This document shows positions 24,477 to 38,191 of a stretch of DNA of 64,000 nt, in pieces. Below the pieces are notes generated by a model. The model saw only the letters and a list, made by a program, of their open reading frames with translations, was not told the origin of the DNA and did not search any database. A program made the translations under genes and the position numbers. The stretch's first letter is position 1. Every line of letters begins with the position of its first letter. The DNA comes from Candidatus Jettenia sp. (GTDB lineage Bacteria; Planctomycetota; Brocadiia; Brocadiales; Brocadiaceae): contig CP091278.1 of the NCBI GenBank assembly GCA_021650895.1, positions 355,736 to 419,735 of the forward strand, given 5' to 3'.

Positions 24477-25253
24477 CTATTTAGCCTGTTTTTGGGTTTT
24501 CTTTGATTCATTTTTACATATTGGGCATACCAGGTAATTTTCATTGCAGGTCTCACACTGTTGAATAAGCCATTCCTTTGGTTCTTTCTTACAATCAGGA
24601 CATTTCATTTTCCAGTCTATAGGATGATATGCCTTTCCCTTGATAGGTCTTACCCGTTCTGTTTCACATTTGGGGCACTTACTTTCTATCGATCCGGACT
24701 CTAAACCTTCTTTAGCCTTTTCCTGTTGTGCTTTACAAATTGAGCATGCCAGGAAATCTTCACCGCAGGTATCACAATGCTGAATGATCATCTCTTCCGG
24801 TTTTTGTTTACAGTCAGGACATTTCATTTTCCACTCTACGGGATGATATGCCTTTCCCTTAATAGGTCTTGAGCGTACTAATTTGCATTTGGGACACTTG
24901 CTTTCCATTGTCGTGGCATCTAGCTCAGCAGAAGCTTTTCGACACATAGGGCATACAAGAACGTCTTTTCCACATTTATCACAACGATGAACAGCATCTC
25001 CTGATACTTCATTTTTACATTCGGGACAAACCATGGTCTTGGGTAAAAGTAACCCTCTTTTCCCTGGGGTTAAACTCTTTTCTTTACAGGACGGGCAAAT
25101 GAGAGTCTCTTCGTCTGTTGTGGCTTGTTCTGTAACTTCAGTTCTTTTCCCTGGTTCTTCCTCTGAGTAAACAAGATTATCCAGCCAGGTTACCAAACTA
25201 AAAAACGCAACTACAGAAGCAATTGCAATTCCTAAAACTTTTTTATTCAACAT
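24477..25253 (-). CDS. Secreted or membrane-anchored multi-CxxC zinc-ribbon-like protein (three units)
   Basis: A hydrophobic N-terminus (about residues 6-24) targets the protein to or across the membrane. The rest contains twelve CxxC pairs arranged as three units of four. The second and third units each carry KCPKC...RPIKGKAYHP...WKMKCPDCK...QCxTC...CxIC, and the first is more diverged. Each unit could bind two zinc or iron ions. A one-unit relative is encoded at 57801-58157. I do not recognise a named family. The location after an octaheme cytochrome gene on the same strand suggests a possible link with extracytoplasmic metal or redox biology, which is speculative. GGGGG lies upstream of the ATG. 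Confidence 0.75.
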   Translation of the reverse strand: MLNKKVLGIAIASVVAFFSLVTWLDNLVYSEEEPGKRTEVTEQATTDEETLICPSCKEKSLTPGKRGLLLPKTMVCPECKNEVSGDAVHRCDKCGKDVLVCPMCRKASAELDATTMESKCPKCKLVRSRPIKGKAYHPVEWKMKCPDCKQKPEEMIIQHCDTCGEDFLACSICKAQQEKAKEGLESGSIESKCPKCETERVRPIKGKAYHPIDWKMKCPDCKKEPKEWLIQQCETCNENYLVCPICKNESKKTQKQAK

Positions 25254-25563: not shown

Positions 25564-27072
25564 TTATTTTCTTTTTGTTTGAATCAAATCCCGTATTTTA
25601 TTCAGGGTTGTTGTTAACTCCCACCAGCCGTTTTTAAATGCAGCATAGTCAGGTCCTTCCATAGCGGATGCGTATCGTACTGAATTAGCATAGAACAGCC
25701 ATTGCCTTATCCACAGATGTTCAATTTCTTCGTCAAAAGGATTCGATGCGTCTGCCAATCCTTCTTTCCATGCTTTCAAAAGTAATTGTGTAGCAGAAGA
25801 AACCATCTTATCTGTTTCAACTATTGTGTCGTCCAGCCTGGCAAAGTGTTTACTAGCCCAATCTGTATTGTGGCAACCCAGACATACCTTTTTCATTTCA
25901 GTTTGCCGCCGCATCTGTTCGTTCTCATCAATAAGGTACTCGGAGGCCAATTCACCAGTAAGACTCGTGGGAAAAGATAGGCCTTCCTTATTTTTGATAC
26001 TATAGGTTCTGCCATCTTTGGGTTGTGGATGAGAATAGATAAGTCCGAAAATCCTTACCCACAACCTTGCGCCGAAATCATGAGTTCTTGGTACAATTAC
26101 CTTGCTGTCAGGAGTAGCTATGAGGCTATTATGACAGGTAGCACATGTGGGAGCCTGAAAATCTTTACCAACCCTCCAGGGAACGTTATTCCAATTCCAT
26201 TCATGCTGGTTTGAGGAGAAAATATTCCCATGTTTACTCTCCTGGTAAATGTTAAAGGCCGGTACATCCGGTTCGATATGGCATTGGGAGCATGTGTACG
26301 GTTTTCTGGCTATCTCTATTGAGAAGCTGTGTCTTGGATGACATGATGTGCATGAGCCGCGGCTCTCATCCGGATTAATCCTTCCGACACCCTGATTTGG
26401 CCAATTTGTAAGATCAGGAACGTATATATCACCCATGCCGGAGGATATCTTTTTCATTCCAAGAACGGTAACTCTGGTTCCATGACAGGCATAGCAACTC
26501 TCTGCTTTTGTGCTATCTGATGCATTGAGGTGAATTATCTTATCATCTTGTATCTCTTTTGTACTTACAATTGCTTCAACAAGGCTATGATACTGAGGGT
26601 TCTTCTGAAGATTATCCAATGCATAGGCCTTCTTGCTAACAGAATACTGGTCGGCTTCTGCAGAATGACAAATCTTACAGTCATTGGGAGATACAATTAC
26701 ATTGATCTTGAATCCGAAATGCTCAAAATTGTCCTTGTGTGCAGAAGGATTCTGACTGTGGCACTCATAACAGCCAACGACTACTGTTTGTAAGGATTCT
26801 GGTATTGTTTCGCTTGAAACCCTTCTTTCTAGTGCAGGTTTTTTAAGCGCTATTTCCGGGGTTGTTTTTGAATGCCTGCTTCTCAGCCAGTCTTCTACTA
26901 TTCCGGGGGTATAATTTTTGTGACATATTATACATACCTGAGTTTGTTCGCTTAAATCGGGTGGAAGGGAGATTGCCTTTCCTTCGTCGGAGAACGTTTC
27001 CGATGGGTATACAAAGGTATATACAAACAGCAAGGTTAAACAAAATGCGTGAATAAATATTTGCTTTATCAT
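25564..27072 (-). CDS. Octaheme hydroxylamine-oxidoreductase-like cytochrome c
   Basis: Signal peptide followed by exactly eight CxxCH haem sites (CIICH, CYECH, CKICH, CYACH, CTSCH, CSQCH, CATCH, CLGCH), with spacing and length (502 aa) typical of the HAO family. Further conserved segments are WPNQGVGRINPDESRGSC and QPKDGRTYS. The C-terminal helices have several tyrosines (LFYANSVRYASAM...PDYAAF). Whether one of them cross-links to haem 4, as in oxidative HAO, or the protein is a reductive paralogue cannot be decided by eye. The start is the second ATG, because AGAAGGAGA precedes it and overlaps the first. It acts outside the cytoplasmic membrane. It lies 65 bp downstream of the ATPase gene. 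Confidence 0.92.
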   Translation of the reverse strand: MIKQIFIHAFCLTLLFVYTFVYPSETFSDEGKAISLPPDLSEQTQVCIICHKNYTPGIVEDWLRSRHSKTTPEIALKKPALERRVSSETIPESLQTVVVGCYECHSQNPSAHKDNFEHFGFKINVIVSPNDCKICHSAEADQYSVSKKAYALDNLQKNPQYHSLVEAIVSTKEIQDDKIIHLNASDSTKAESCYACHGTRVTVLGMKKISSGMGDIYVPDLTNWPNQGVGRINPDESRGSCTSCHPRHSFSIEIARKPYTCSQCHIEPDVPAFNIYQESKHGNIFSSNQHEWNWNNVPWRVGKDFQAPTCATCHNSLIATPDSKVIVPRTHDFGARLWVRIFGLIYSHPQPKDGRTYSIKNKEGLSFPTSLTGELASEYLIDENEQMRRQTEMKKVCLGCHNTDWASKHFARLDDTIVETDKMVSSATQLLLKAWKEGLADASNPFDEEIEHLWIRQWLFYANSVRYASAMEGPDYAAFKNGWWELTTTLNKIRDLIQTKRK

Positions 27073-27137
27073 AAGATGTCTCCTTCTCATAAAGATAATT
27101 ACAAAAATGGTACTCTTTGCAGTTTACCCCTCATCGT

Positions 27138-30100
27138 CTATTTCTTCCTTATAAAACATTTTATTATTTCCATAAGAATGAATGTAAGAGAAGAAAATCC
27201 GAAGATGGCTACCCAATCTTCTAATCCTAATAAGGTTATCTTGAAGATATCATGAAAGTAAGGGATGTAGATAACAGACATCTGCATAGCTAACGAAAAT
27301 GCAATTGCCAATAACAGTTTTTTATTGGTAAAAATACCGATTCTCAAGAGCGAGTGAGTAACATTTCTGCAGTTAAATGAATGAAACAACTGTGAAATAA
27401 CTACAACAAAGAAGGCAATCGTTCTGGCGTGTGCAATATCACCATGTAATTCGTAAGGTATTACTTTGTCGGTAAACCAATTATTGTAGAATGCGAGAAG
27501 TAATGGAATGCCTCCATACAACACATAGAGATAAGCCAAAAGGGTGCTGAATGCTATAAGAAAACTCTGTAATAGGATCAATGCAAAAAATCTTTTATCC
27601 ATGAATCGTTTTGCTGAGCCTCTGTCTGGCAGATTTATGGCACGGGAACCTGCTGTATCAGCACTTAATGCCAATGTCGGTAATATATTTGTTACCATGC
27701 TTATCCATAGTATGTGCAAGGGAAATAATGGTACCGGGAGTTTGAGAACTAAGGCAAAGAGTATAGCCAGAATCTCGCCCGCATTGCAGGAAAGCAAGTA
27801 GTGGATAGGCTTTCGTATGGTAGCATACAAACTCTTTACTTCATCAACAGCTATTTTTGCCACTTCGGCAGCTGCAACACCCATAGGTACTTCTGTTCTT
27901 CTCATAAAGAGTTTTATTATTTCCATAATAATGAACGTAAAAGAGGAAAATCCAAAGATTAAAATCCAATCTCCGGGTTCCAAAGGTATCACCTTAAAAA
28001 TAGTATCAAAATAAGGGATATAGATAATACTCACTTGCATGGCTAATGAAATTCCAGCTGCCAGAAGAAGTTTTTTGTTGGTAAAAGGCCCGATTGCGAA
28101 TAATGAACGTCTTGCGTTCCTGCAGTTAAATGATTGAAATAGTTGTGAGACAACCATGACACAGAAGGCAATCGTTCTGGCCCGCTCAATATCACCGTCG
28201 AATTCGTAGGATACTGTTTTACCGTTAAACCAGTTATTATAGAATGCATCGAATGCCGCATCAAATCCATACAATACATAGAGATACGCCAGGAGGGTAC
28301 TGAATGTTATGAGGAAGCCTTGTAATACAATTAATTTACCAAGACTTCTGTCTATGATTTGTGCTGTTGATCTTCTGGCTTGCCTTCTCATAATATGCGG
28401 ATCTACGGTATCTACACCTAATGCTAATGCCGGTAATCCATCGGTTGCAATGTTGATCCATAATATCTGGATTGGAAATAGGGGGAGAGGGAGATTGAAT
28501 AAGGAGGCGAAGAGCATAGTCAATACTTCACCGGCATTACAGGAAAGCAAGTAGTGGATAGACTTTTTAATGTTATCATAGATGCCTCTTCCTTCTTCAA
28601 CAGCTGCTACGATAGATGCAAAATTGTCATCGGTTATAATAATATCAGATGCCTCTTTAGTAACATCCGTACCGGTAATACCCATAGAGATACCGATACT
28701 TGCCTCTTTCACAGCAGGGGCGTCATTTACCCCATCTCCGGTCATAGCAACAACGGCGCCTTGTTTCTTCCACGCCCTTACGATCCGGATCTTATGCTCA
28801 GCAGAGACTCGTGCATACACGGCTATCTTTGGCACTTCTTTTTCTAAGGTTTCATCAGAGAGGGTATCTAATTCCATTCCATCGATAACCTTTAAGTTGT
28901 CTTTCAAAAATCCCAATTCTTCTCCGATTGCACGTGCAGTATTCTTATGGTCTCCCGTAATCATAACCGTTGTTATACATGCCCTGTGGCAGGTGACAAC
29001 AGCATCTTTGACTTCTGGCCTGGGAGGGTCAATCATAGCTACAAGTCCGGCAAAGATCATATCCTTTTCAATCGTATCAGGGGTTGGTTTCTCAGGCAGG
29101 TGATCAAGTGTCTTGAATGCTATACCAAGAACGCGTAAGGCAGCTCCGGCCATCTTGTCGTTTTCATCCAGGATAACACGGATATCCTCTTCTGTTAAAT
29201 TCCTTACGTTCCCTTCGACATAGATCTTTGTGCAATCCTTTACGATAACATCCGGAGCTCCTTTGGTAAAAACAATAAACTCAGGTGGCATACTTCTCAT
29301 CGTTGACATTTTTTTCCGGTCGGAATCGAAGGGAAGCTCTGATATCAGGGGAGATTTTTTTTCCAGTGCTTCTTTACAAACATCTGCCTTAGCTGCAGCG
29401 CTAATAATAGCGCCCTCTGTAGGATCGCCAATGATTTTCCACGTGCTATCTACTTTTTTAAGATGGGCATTATTACACAATACACCAATTTCAAGGACCT
29501 TCCTGAGTGTTTGATGGTCAGTTTCTGAAAGGGATATGCCCCGATAGGAGAAGTCTCCTATCGGAGCATATCCTGTTCCCGAAACATCAAAGGTTTTACC
29601 ATTGGCAAATATCTTCCTGATGGTCATTTCATTTTGAGTTAGCGTACCTGTTTTGTCTGAGCAAATGACATTAGCACAGCCCAGTGTCTCCACCGAAGGT
29701 AATTTACGGATTAATACATGCCGCCTTACCATACGCTGTACCCCCAGCGCTAAAGCTATTGTTACTATGGCAGGGAGGCCTTCGGGAATAGCAGCAACGG
29801 CAAGGCTGACTGATATGAGGAAAGCCTCCAGTAACGGACCTTTCCTCCATATCTCTAAAAAGAAGACGAGGGCTACGATCCCTAAACATACATACACTAA
29901 CTTTCTTCCAAATACTTCAAGCTTATGCTGGAGGGGGGTTGCCTCCTTTCCTGCCCCCTGAATGAGACTTGCAATTTTACCCAATTCGGTATGCATCCCC
30001 GTTGTTACAACAACGCATTTGGCTTTCCCATTCGTTACCGAGGTGCCCATAAACACCATATTTTTTCTATCCCCAATAGGCAGAGAGGGGTTGGGAAGGG

Positions 30101-30641
30101 GTTCTGCAGACTTGGTGACCGGTGTTGATTCTCCAGTAAGGGATGCTTCCTGAGTACTTAAACTATAGGAAGAGTATAATCTTCCATCGGCAGGGACATA
30201 GTCACCGGCATCCAGAAGAACAATATCCCCAGGTACAACGTCCCGAGAAGGGATAGAATGTACTTCGCCATCCCGTGTTACCCGTGAAAAGGGCGCCGAT
30301 AGCTTTTGCAAGGCTGCAAGAGATTTTTCAGCACGGTATTCCTGGATAAATCCAATAATGGCATTGATAATAACGATAGCAATGATGGCTAACGCATCAT
30401 CCCATTCTTTTAAAACTCCGGAAACTATGGCGGCCGCAATCAATATTAATACAATAAAGTTATTAAATTGTCCCAAAAAAAGCGTAAAGGGAGATACACC
30501 TTTTTTTTCCTCCAATTGGTTATGTCCATATTTTTTGAGCCTATTTTTGACCTCGGCATGGCTAAGGCCTGTATCGGCGTTAGTCTCCAGTTTCCTTATT
30601 ACCTCATCAGCTTGCATGGTATACCAGTGTGTGTTACCCAT
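27138..30641 (-). CDS. P-type Ca2+-ATPase-like pump with a duplicated C-terminal membrane domain
   Basis: Residues 1-915 form a complete type II P-type ATPase: TGES (168-171), PEGLP (286-290), phosphorylation site DKTGTLT (329-335), [14 protein letters not shown], and TM5/TM6 ligand motifs SCNAGE (700-705) and NIATDGLPA (730-738). After IIKLFMRR the whole TM5-TM10 block repeats (about 939-1167), giving 1167 aa instead of about 900. In the second block SCNAGE is kept, but the TM6 motif is SMVTNILPT, so the Asn and Asp ligands are lost. Repeated landmarks include [22 protein letters not shown] and FTNKKLLLA. The pump core should still move cations. The function of the extra domain is unknown. 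Confidence 0.93.
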
Positions 30642-30689
30642 TATTCCTATCCTCTGGAAATAGTGAATTCTTTATAAGGTTAAAAATCT

Positions 30690-30772
30690 TTTTTCTATTA
30701 CCGTATTTTATTATTTCCATGAGGATAAATACAAGAAAAGAAAATCAAAAGACTATAAATCTGCTTCTCGTA
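30690..30772 (-). pseudogene. Remnant of a third copy of the ATPase C-terminal end
   Basis: Read on the minus strand, this gives FIV-F[23 protein letters not shown], which aligns with the two ends inside the adjacent gene: [22 protein letters not shown] and [21 protein letters not shown]. One glycine codon has become TGA. It lies immediately upstream of the intact ATPase start. Confidence 0.7.
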
Positions 30773-31176: not shown

Positions 31177-31536
31177 TTAATACCCGCCACTTTTACGTTG
31201 CGGTGTGGTTTCTGTTTGTGTATAGGAGTCAGGATCTTTTTTGAATGTTTTCTTGCACTGTTCTGAACAGAAATAGTAAGTTTCTCCGTTATGCTCTTCT
31301 GACGGCGCCTTTTTTATATTGCTTACTTCCATATTACATACAGGATCTTTAGCAGCCCCGCTTTCTTCACTTTCCATCCCTGCTTTTGTTTGAATTATGT
31401 ATCCATTTGACTCATAGCAGTTCTGTTTACTCTCAGCTTCATAAATCCCGTATGCCCATGTAACCGTACTCATATAAGCGCCACCGAAAACTATAATAAA
31501 AACCGGTATTAAAGCTCTTCGTAAGATAGTATTCAT
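31177..31536 (-). CDS. Secreted YHS-domain protein
   Basis: A short N-terminal signal sequence (RRALIPVFIIVFGGAYMS) is followed by a linker and a YHS domain, KDPVCNMEV...GETYYFCSEQCKKTFKKDPDSY. In this family three cysteines and neighbouring side chains are thought to bind a metal, and the domain often occurs next to heavy-metal pumps. Here it lies 0.5 kb upstream of the P-type ATPase gene on the same strand, so a role in handling metal outside the cytoplasm is possible. The ribosome-binding site AGAGGAGA precedes the start. Confidence 0.85.
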   Translation of the reverse strand: MNTILRRALIPVFIIVFGGAYMSTVTWAYGIYEAESKQNCYESNGYIIQTKAGMESEESGAAKDPVCNMEVSNIKKAPSEEHNGETYYFCSEQCKKTFKKDPDSYTQTETTPQRKSGGY

Positions 31537-37408: not shown

Positions 37409-38191
37409 TTAATAACTTTCCTTAACGATTCTGCCGTGCTGAGGTTGAATTGGTCTTGCATCCCTCTTAAAAATGGAGGCAAATTTTTCCAATTCTGCTT
37501 TTGATACTTGAATTGGGGTCTTTAAGACAAACCAATTTACAATTTCACTGCAGGGTGGTGTGGTAAGTGAGCCATGATACGTATAATAAGCAGCAGTATT
37601 TTTGGGAAGGATTTGATTGGCATTTATCTTTAAGTCGGTATGTGTATACTCTTTGCCCTGTTCTTTTGGAAAATTACCCCATAAGGTTTTTATGAAATCA
37701 TTTTCTTTGCCCTCTTCCATGAATACAGCAATAACCGCTAATTCTCCATGCGCGCCCTTATGCACTAAATGTGCTTCCATATCGTAAGATTTTCCATGTA
37801 TTTTGTGCTCACTAGGGCAGTGAAAGTGAAACTGTATGAGTTCATACTTCTTGTTACCGATAGATATCGAGCTTCCACACCCGTAATTAATTTGCATAGT
37901 ATGACCATTGTTTATAATTTTCAAAGGGGTTGCATAGTAGTGAAAGTTTATACTATCTAGCTTGGCTTTTTGTGTTATGGAAATACCAATTGGTGATTGC
38001 ATATCTCCCAATTTGCATTTGCAATTTTTGTGTATGAGATCGCCCCAGTGTTCTGGTCCACACTCACCCTCGTAACTCCAATGTTCCGATTTATTATGTT
38101 CATCAGATCCGGCGAATAAAGTCGTTGCGACTATCATCGATGAAAAGAACAGAAAGGTCGGTGTTAAAACAAGGTATTTCAGTGTCTTCAT
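37409..38191 (-). CDS. cah: Secreted alpha-type carbonic anhydrase
   Basis: Interconverts CO2 and bicarbonate outside the cytoplasmic membrane. A signal peptide is followed by the alpha-class landmarks HWSYEGECGPEHWG, QSPIGI, the zinc ligands in LIQFHFHCPSEH and EAHLVH, and the Thr-containing loop SLTTPPCSE. Length 260 aa is normal. Strong ribosome-binding site AAGGAGA. The gene is divergent from the M28 peptidase, with a TTGACA/TATAAG promoter candidate on its strand. The dispersed repeat on its 3' side reaches the stop codon. Confidence 0.94.
   Translation of the reverse strand: MKTLKYLVLTPTFLFFSSMIVATTLFAGSDEHNKSEHWSYEGECGPEHWGDLIHKNCKCKLGDMQSPIGISITQKAKLDSINFHYYATPLKIINNGHTMQINYGCGSSISIGNKKYELIQFHFHCPSEHKIHGKSYDMEAHLVHKGAHGELAVIAVFMEEGKENDFIKTLWGNFPKEQGKEYTHTDLKINANQILPKNTAAYYTYHGSLTTPPCSEIVNWFVLKTPIQVSKAELEKFASIFKRDARPIQPQHGRIVKESY

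What the first reader, a model, noticed from the sequence alone, without database searches (positions are those of the whole stretch)
27138..30641. P-type ATPase carrying two tandem copies of its TM5-TM10 membrane domain
The 1167-residue protein is a complete Ca2+-type pump to residue 915, then repeats its own C-terminal membrane block (about 689-915 matches 939-1167, offset 251). The first copy keeps the cation ligands (SCNAGE, N730, T733, D734). The second keeps SCNAGE but has S981 and N985 in TM6, so its TM6 site is broken. Both copies are open with no frameshift, and clear similarity is visible at DNA level, which suggests the extra six-helix module is maintained. It could be an oligomerisation or regulatory module. 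I know of no described pump with this layout.
Basis: partly seen in the sequence, partly recalled or inferred. Interest (0 to 1): 0.75.

Follow-up and report, generated by a model that had tools for sequence, protein, structure and literature searches.

The report
Calcium-type pump with duplicated membrane half
In two genera of ammonium-oxidising (anammox) bacteria, a calcium-type ion pump carries a second, fused copy of the back half of its membrane domain; the copy can no longer couple to the motor or form a full ion site but has stayed intact, so it looks like a built-in accessory part whose job is untested.

Summary
Confirmed. The gene lies on the MINUS strand (30641 to 27138) and encodes a 1167-aa P2-type (Ca2+-type) ATPase, complete to ~915, followed by a second TM5-TM10 block (931-1166; 59% identical to 680-915, ungapped). 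It is not an assembly artefact: the window's genome is one 3.82-Mb contig, and the same architecture is in all three Jettenia species genomes held and in Ca. Loosdrechtia aerotolerans (71% identical). No other of 33 family, 75 class or 392 phylum genomes showed it; relatives have ordinary ~920-945-aa copies. Block 2 is one clade (100/99), so it arose once, most likely when two tandem ATPase genes fused in frame; the linker retains a P-domain relic and a scar of a further copy lies just upstream. Block 2 folds as TM5-TM10 (AlphaFold, SERCA/SPCA match) and is under purifying but relaxed selection (dN/dS ~0.22 versus ~0.1). Conserved residues were lost selectively in the stalk and L6-7 loop, the motor-coupling elements (Fisher p = 1.7e-4); TM7, TM8, TM10 and the luminal L7-8 loop are kept. 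Best reading: a non-transporting membrane module fused to a normal pump as an accessory domain. Function is inferred. A new variant of a known kind.

The parts
27138..30641 (-). Complete ORF, 1167 aa: P2-type ATPase with duplicated C-terminal membrane domain
   Evidence: orthologues at 96-97% (Jettenia) and 71% (Loosdrechtia)
28605..30641 (-). Residues 1-679: A, N and P domains and TM1-TM4; TGES at 169-172, PEGL at 286-289, DKTGT with D329, all intact
27897..28604 (-). Block 1, residues 680-915: stalk 5 and TM5-TM10 of the working pump; N702, E705, N730, T733, D734 present, Q833 at the SERCA E908 position
27852..27896 (-). Linker, residues 916-930; best match in the whole protein is the P-domain motif [14 protein letters not shown] (653-666), read as a relic of a second gene
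   Evidence: shuffle p 2.5e-4; same site in Loosdrechtia, p 8.5e-4
27144..27851 (-). Block 2, residues 931-1166: second stalk 5 and TM5-TM10; S981 and N985 replace N730 and D734, coupling elements degenerate
28173..28316 (-). Tract of block 1 (residues 776-823, TM7 and loop L7-8) that in Jettenia resembles block 2, not other pumps; probable gene conversion from block 2
   Evidence: tract-only tree SH-aLRT 96 with block 2; without the tract, block 1 groups with Loosdrechtia block 1 at 91
30688..30753 (-). 22-residue TM10 tail of a lost ordinary ATPase copy, with an in-frame stop, just upstream of the gene; present in all three Jettenia
25564..27090 (-). 508-aa multihaem cytochrome c (8 CXXCH), 47 bp downstream on the same strand; the ATPase-cytochrome pair is conserved in Brocadiaceae with ordinary ATPases
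31177..31536 (-). YHS-domain protein upstream, part of the conserved neighbourhood

Best explanation
The gene encodes a P2-type ATPase (closest to the P2A Ca2+ pumps) with ten helices and a complete cation site, to which a second TM5-TM10 bundle has been fused, giving sixteen predicted helices. The fusion most likely arose once, before Jettenia and Loosdrechtia diverged (or was passed between them), when two tandem ATPase genes were joined in frame by a deletion that removed the first gene's stop codon and the second gene up to the end of its P domain. The second bundle cannot pump on its own: it has no TM1-TM4, no A, N or P domain, a degenerate stalk and L6-7 loop, and an altered TM6 site. 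It persists as a membrane module beside the pump, presumably packing through TM7, TM8, TM10 and luminal loop L7-8, and acts as a built-in structural or regulatory subunit. Shown: architecture, conservation, single origin, selective decay of coupling elements. Inferred: fusion as the mechanism, the packing, and the accessory role.
For: Same 1167-aa ORF in 3/3 Jettenia and a 1175-aa one in Loosdrechtia. Block-2 clade 100/99 and N-terminal parts of the four extended genes grouped 98/94; separate duplication in Jettenia rejected (AU p 0.0014). No stop and no indel in 236 codons of block 2 in four genomes; dN/dS 0.22 between genera, 0.34-0.44 within Jettenia, versus 0.10-0.12 and 0.18-0.28 for block 1; a neutral simulation at 1 substitution per site gives about 10 stops. 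Block 2 model pLDDT 84, pTM 0.83, matching SERCA and SPCA TM5-TM10. Coupling elements keep 8/28 conserved residues versus 73/106 elsewhere (p 1.7e-4); block 1 shows no such bias (25/28 versus 95/106); L7-8 is 19/28 identical between genera in block 2 and 6/28 in block 1. Fusion: P-domain relic in the linker, TM10 scar upstream, normal and extended genes in tandem in Loosdrechtia, and a further deletion derivative there.
Against: No expression, protein or transport data. dN/dS in block 2 is about twice that of block 1, so constraint may be only on folding harmlessly in the membrane. The full-length model is only moderate (pLDDT 73, pTM 0.52), so the packing of the second bundle is unknown. The other Loosdrechtia-genus genome and the rest of the family do without it. 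The tree does not exclude intragenic duplication (AU p 0.46).
Confidence: 0.5

Rival explanations
1. Block 2 is a harmless passenger: an accidental fusion that persists because it folds in the membrane, constrained only by topology, and is slowly decaying.
For: dN/dS about twice that of block 1; loss of stalk, L6-7 and TM6 residues; present in only two genera.
Against: Intact without indels in four genomes across saturated synonymous divergence, while neighbouring relics (upstream scar, L042) have decayed; residues lost selectively by region, with L7-8 more conserved between genera than in block 1.
Confidence: 0.33
2. Block 2 is a second transport site or half-pathway that changes stoichiometry or lets the pump carry a second ion.
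For: N953, E956, T984 and Q1084 are kept in all four block-2 sequences.
Against: No TM1-TM4 (so no PEGL), no second A/N/P domains, degenerate coupling elements, N to S in all four and D to N in Jettenia in TM6.
Confidence: 0.05
3. Same protein, but origin by in-frame copying of TM5-TM10 within one gene rather than gene fusion (concerns origin only, not exclusive with the functional readings).
For: Not rejected by the AU test (p 0.46); constant 753-nt offset in Jettenia.
Against: P-domain relic in the linker; without the conversion tract block 2 groups with the ordinary G016 paralogue (90/91); tandem genes, scar and deletion derivatives at related loci.
Confidence: 0.3
4. Assembly or sequencing artefact.
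For: None found.
Against: Single-contig genome plus three separate assemblies in two genera at 94-95% and 58% block-2 identity.
Confidence: 0.01

Closest known systems
Ordinary Brocadiaceae P2-type ATPase beside the octahaem cytochrome (e.g. L047, L048, L043)
   Same: 68-77% identical over residues 1-915, same neighbourhood (ATPase then cytochrome)
   Different: About 920-945 aa, no second TM5-TM10 block
Listeria LMCA1 (lmo0841) and PMR1/SPCA-type P2A Ca2+ pumps
   Same: Best solved relatives by sequence; same A/N/P/TM layout to residue 915; TIGR01522 is the best NCBIfam model
   Different: Ten helices; the core 1-918 here falls below the TIGR01522 and TIGR01116 cut-offs; no duplicated membrane block
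SERCA2b (extra TM11 and luminal tail), Na,K-ATPase with beta subunit
   Same: Known cases (from general knowledge) in which an added helix or subunit modulates a P2 pump, partly through TM7/TM10 and loop L7-8
   Different: Those additions are single helices unrelated to the pump; here six helices are a copy of the pump itself
P5A ATPases (12 helices)
   Same: P-type pump with extra helices
   Different: Two N-terminal helices; a 2023 review gives 7 to 12 helices as the range in P-type ATPases (PMC10654040), below the 16 predicted here

Membership tests
P-type ATPase superfamily, P2 (type II) group | DKTGT phosphorylation motif, TGES, and E1-E2, hydrolase, N- and C-terminal cation ATPase domains | tested here: met
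   D329 in DKTGT, TGES 169-172, all five Pfam domains above cut-off
P2A Ca2+ ATPase (PMR1-type TIGR01522, SERCA-type TIGR01116) | Score above the curated equivalog cut-off | tested here: inconclusive
   Full protein passes (844.5 vs 798.3; 779.3 vs 703.4) only because the block counts twice; core 1-918 scores 768.3 and 701.6, just below
P2A Ca2+ ATPase | Cation-site residues of TM4, TM5 and TM6 in the pump core | tested here: met
   PEGL 286-289, N702, E705, N730, T733, D734; Q at the SERCA E908 position
P2A Ca2+ ATPase | Transports Ca2+ | not testable with these tools
   Needs a transport assay
P2A Ca2+ ATPase | Ten transmembrane helices | tested here: not met
   Two TM5-TM10 blocks by sequence, hydropathy and model: sixteen predicted. 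The first 915 residues alone have the ten-helix layout
Cation_ATPase_C domain (PF00689), block 2 | Domain match and TM5-TM10 fold | tested here: met
   Second PF00689 stretch; Foldseek to SERCA and SPCA, E about 1e-8, TM 0.7-0.8

The most novel reading that the evidence does not exclude
A P-type pump has turned a copy of its own membrane half into a covalently attached, non-transporting regulatory subunit (an internal counterpart of a beta subunit or SERCA2b's TM11) that docks through TM7/TM8/TM10 and loop L7-8; loop L7-8 was then copied back into the pump in Jettenia.
Probability: 0.3. Interest if true: 0.7.

Novelty: new variant of a known kind. Interest (0 to 1): 0.5.

Why it matters
P-type pumps are described with 7 to 12 helices and gain regulation from tails, extra helices or separate subunits. 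A pump with a duplicated, decoupled half of its own membrane domain shows another route to an accessory domain and gives a natural test of which membrane parts serve transport and which serve support. It sits beside an octahaem cytochrome in anammox bacteria, whose internal energy-conserving compartment makes ion handling of interest.

Tried and rejected
Assembly artefact: rejected. Independent duplication in each genus: rejected for Jettenia (AU p 0.0014), marginal for Loosdrechtia (0.058). A wider distribution: no hit covering both blocks outside the four genomes in 75 class genomes, none in 392 phylum genomes by the block-2 profile or among the best 80 GTDB loci; plasmid matches said to cover 1-488 are one ~700-770-nt region hit by both blocks, so single-block proteins. 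Many two-domain calls are one block split at a loop gap. Recent gene conversion by fourfold sites: no difference between tract and flanks (4/11 versus 7/17 and 8/17), so the tract is supported at protein level only. The full-length model was too uncertain to place block 2. Literature searches found no described pump with this layout, but the library lacks most subscription journals. Not tested: an exhaustive search for independently duplicated Cation_ATPase_C domains across all phyla.

Full report
What is there. The ORF at 27138-30641 lies on the minus strand and encodes 1167 residues without a stop. Pfam reads a full type II P-type ATPase and a second Cation_ATPase_C domain. Residues 680-915 align to 931-1166 without a gap, 140/236 identical, with codon-position identities 73/79/59%. 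The pump part has TGES, PEGL and DKTGT (D329).

It is not an artefact. The window is part of a single 3.82-Mb contig. The same 1167-aa ORF occurs in the two other Jettenia species genomes held (97 and 96%; G017 is the Ca. Jettenia ecosi record) and a 1175-aa one in Ca. Loosdrechtia aerotolerans (71%). The other family members that have this pump have ordinary copies of about 920-945 aa at 68-77%. Neither the class search (75 genomes), the phylum search (392 genomes) nor the GTDB scan showed another.

One origin. In a tree of all blocks, the four block-2 sequences form a clade (100/99), and the N-terminal parts of the four extended genes group (98/94). Holding Jettenia blocks 1 and 2 together is rejected (AU p 0.0014). 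In Jettenia, residues 776-823 of block 1 look like block 2 rather than like any other pump; the tract alone groups with block 2, and without it block 1 groups with Loosdrechtia block 1. I read this as gene conversion from block 2 into block 1. Fourfold sites do not show it as recent, and holding the four block-1 tracts together is not rejected (AU p 0.11).

How it arose. The linker best matches, in both genera, the P-domain motif just before block 1, as if block 2 once carried a P domain. A 22-residue TM10 tail of a lost ordinary copy lies just upstream of the gene in all three Jettenia. In Loosdrechtia an ordinary copy still stands directly upstream of the extended gene, followed by the cytochrome, and another copy there has lost its middle. 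Fusion of tandem genes explains all of this; copying within one gene is not excluded (AU p 0.46).

What block 2 can do. It models well as six helices (pLDDT 84, pTM 0.83) and matches TM5-TM10 of SERCA and SPCA. It lacks TM1-TM4 and all cytoplasmic domains. Of columns conserved in ordinary copies, the stalk and L6-7 loop keep 8/28 in block 2 and all other regions 73/106 (Fisher p 1.7e-4); block 1 keeps 25/28 and 95/106. TM6 keeps 7/17, TM8 13/15, TM10 8/9. Loop L7-8 is identical at 19/28 positions between the genera in block 2, but 6/28 in block 1, where the Jettenia loop was replaced. The ion-site asparagine of TM6 is serine in all four; the aspartate is asparagine in Jettenia only. So block 2 has lost coupling and the TM6 site and kept the support helices and a luminal loop. 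That the stalk and L6-7 loop couple the P domain to the membrane is established knowledge of P2 pumps, not tested here.

Is it maintained? dN/dS between genera is about 0.22 for block 2, 0.10-0.12 for block 1 and 0.08 for the rest; within Jettenia 0.34-0.44, 0.18-0.28 and 0.08-0.14 (between-genus dS is near saturation). There is purifying selection, weaker than on the pump. A neutral sequence would have gained about ten stops. That supports a function but does not prove one: selection only against misfolding is the main rival.

Known kinds. The core is a P2 ATPase nearest the P2A Ca2+ pumps. The full protein passes the NCBIfam cut-offs for the PMR1 and SERCA types only because block 2 adds to the score; the core alone falls just below, so the ion is not established. 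A 2023 review gives 7-12 helices for P-type ATPases (PMC10654040); sixteen are predicted here. That accessory helices or subunits act on P2 pumps at TM7, TM10 and L7-8 (Na,K-ATPase beta subunit, SERCA2b) is general knowledge, not tested here.

Verdict.

Noticed in passing
L002:1501-5469 (G000:C1:771900 onwards); L174, L175: A second P-type ATPase of 1322 aa fused at its C-terminus to a helix and an ABC-type solute-binding protein (PF01547/PF13416), beside an ABC ATPase gene; also in other Jettenia (two in tandem in G016) and in G022.
   Followed up: partly
L173:789-4076: A 1096-aa P-type ATPase in Jettenia G016 with an N-terminal extension of about 160 aa that resembles a PTS IIA domain (from memory, not tested); similar-sized ORFs in several other Brocadiaceae.
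   Followed up: no
window 25564-27090 (-): An octahaem (8 CXXCH) cytochrome follows the ATPase by 47 bp, and the ATPase-cytochrome pair is conserved across Brocadiaceae; why a cation pump travels with it is unknown.
   Followed up: partly
window 24477-25253 (-): 258-aa protein matching Trm112p-like zinc-binding domains with apparent internal repeats; homologues lie near ATPase genes in several Brocadiaceae.
   Followed up: no
L042:5586-7533 (Loosdrechtia, G021:C22): ATPase copy broken by an internal deletion that joins residue ~581 to the TM10 end, followed by a YHS-domain gene.
   Followed up: partly
window 37409-38191 (-): Eukaryotic-type (alpha) carbonic anhydrase match, PF00194.
   Followed up: no
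window 27138-30641 (-), NCBIfam TIGR01522/TIGR01116: Summed domain scores let a protein with a duplicated block pass an equivalog cut-off that its single-copy core fails.
   Followed up: yes
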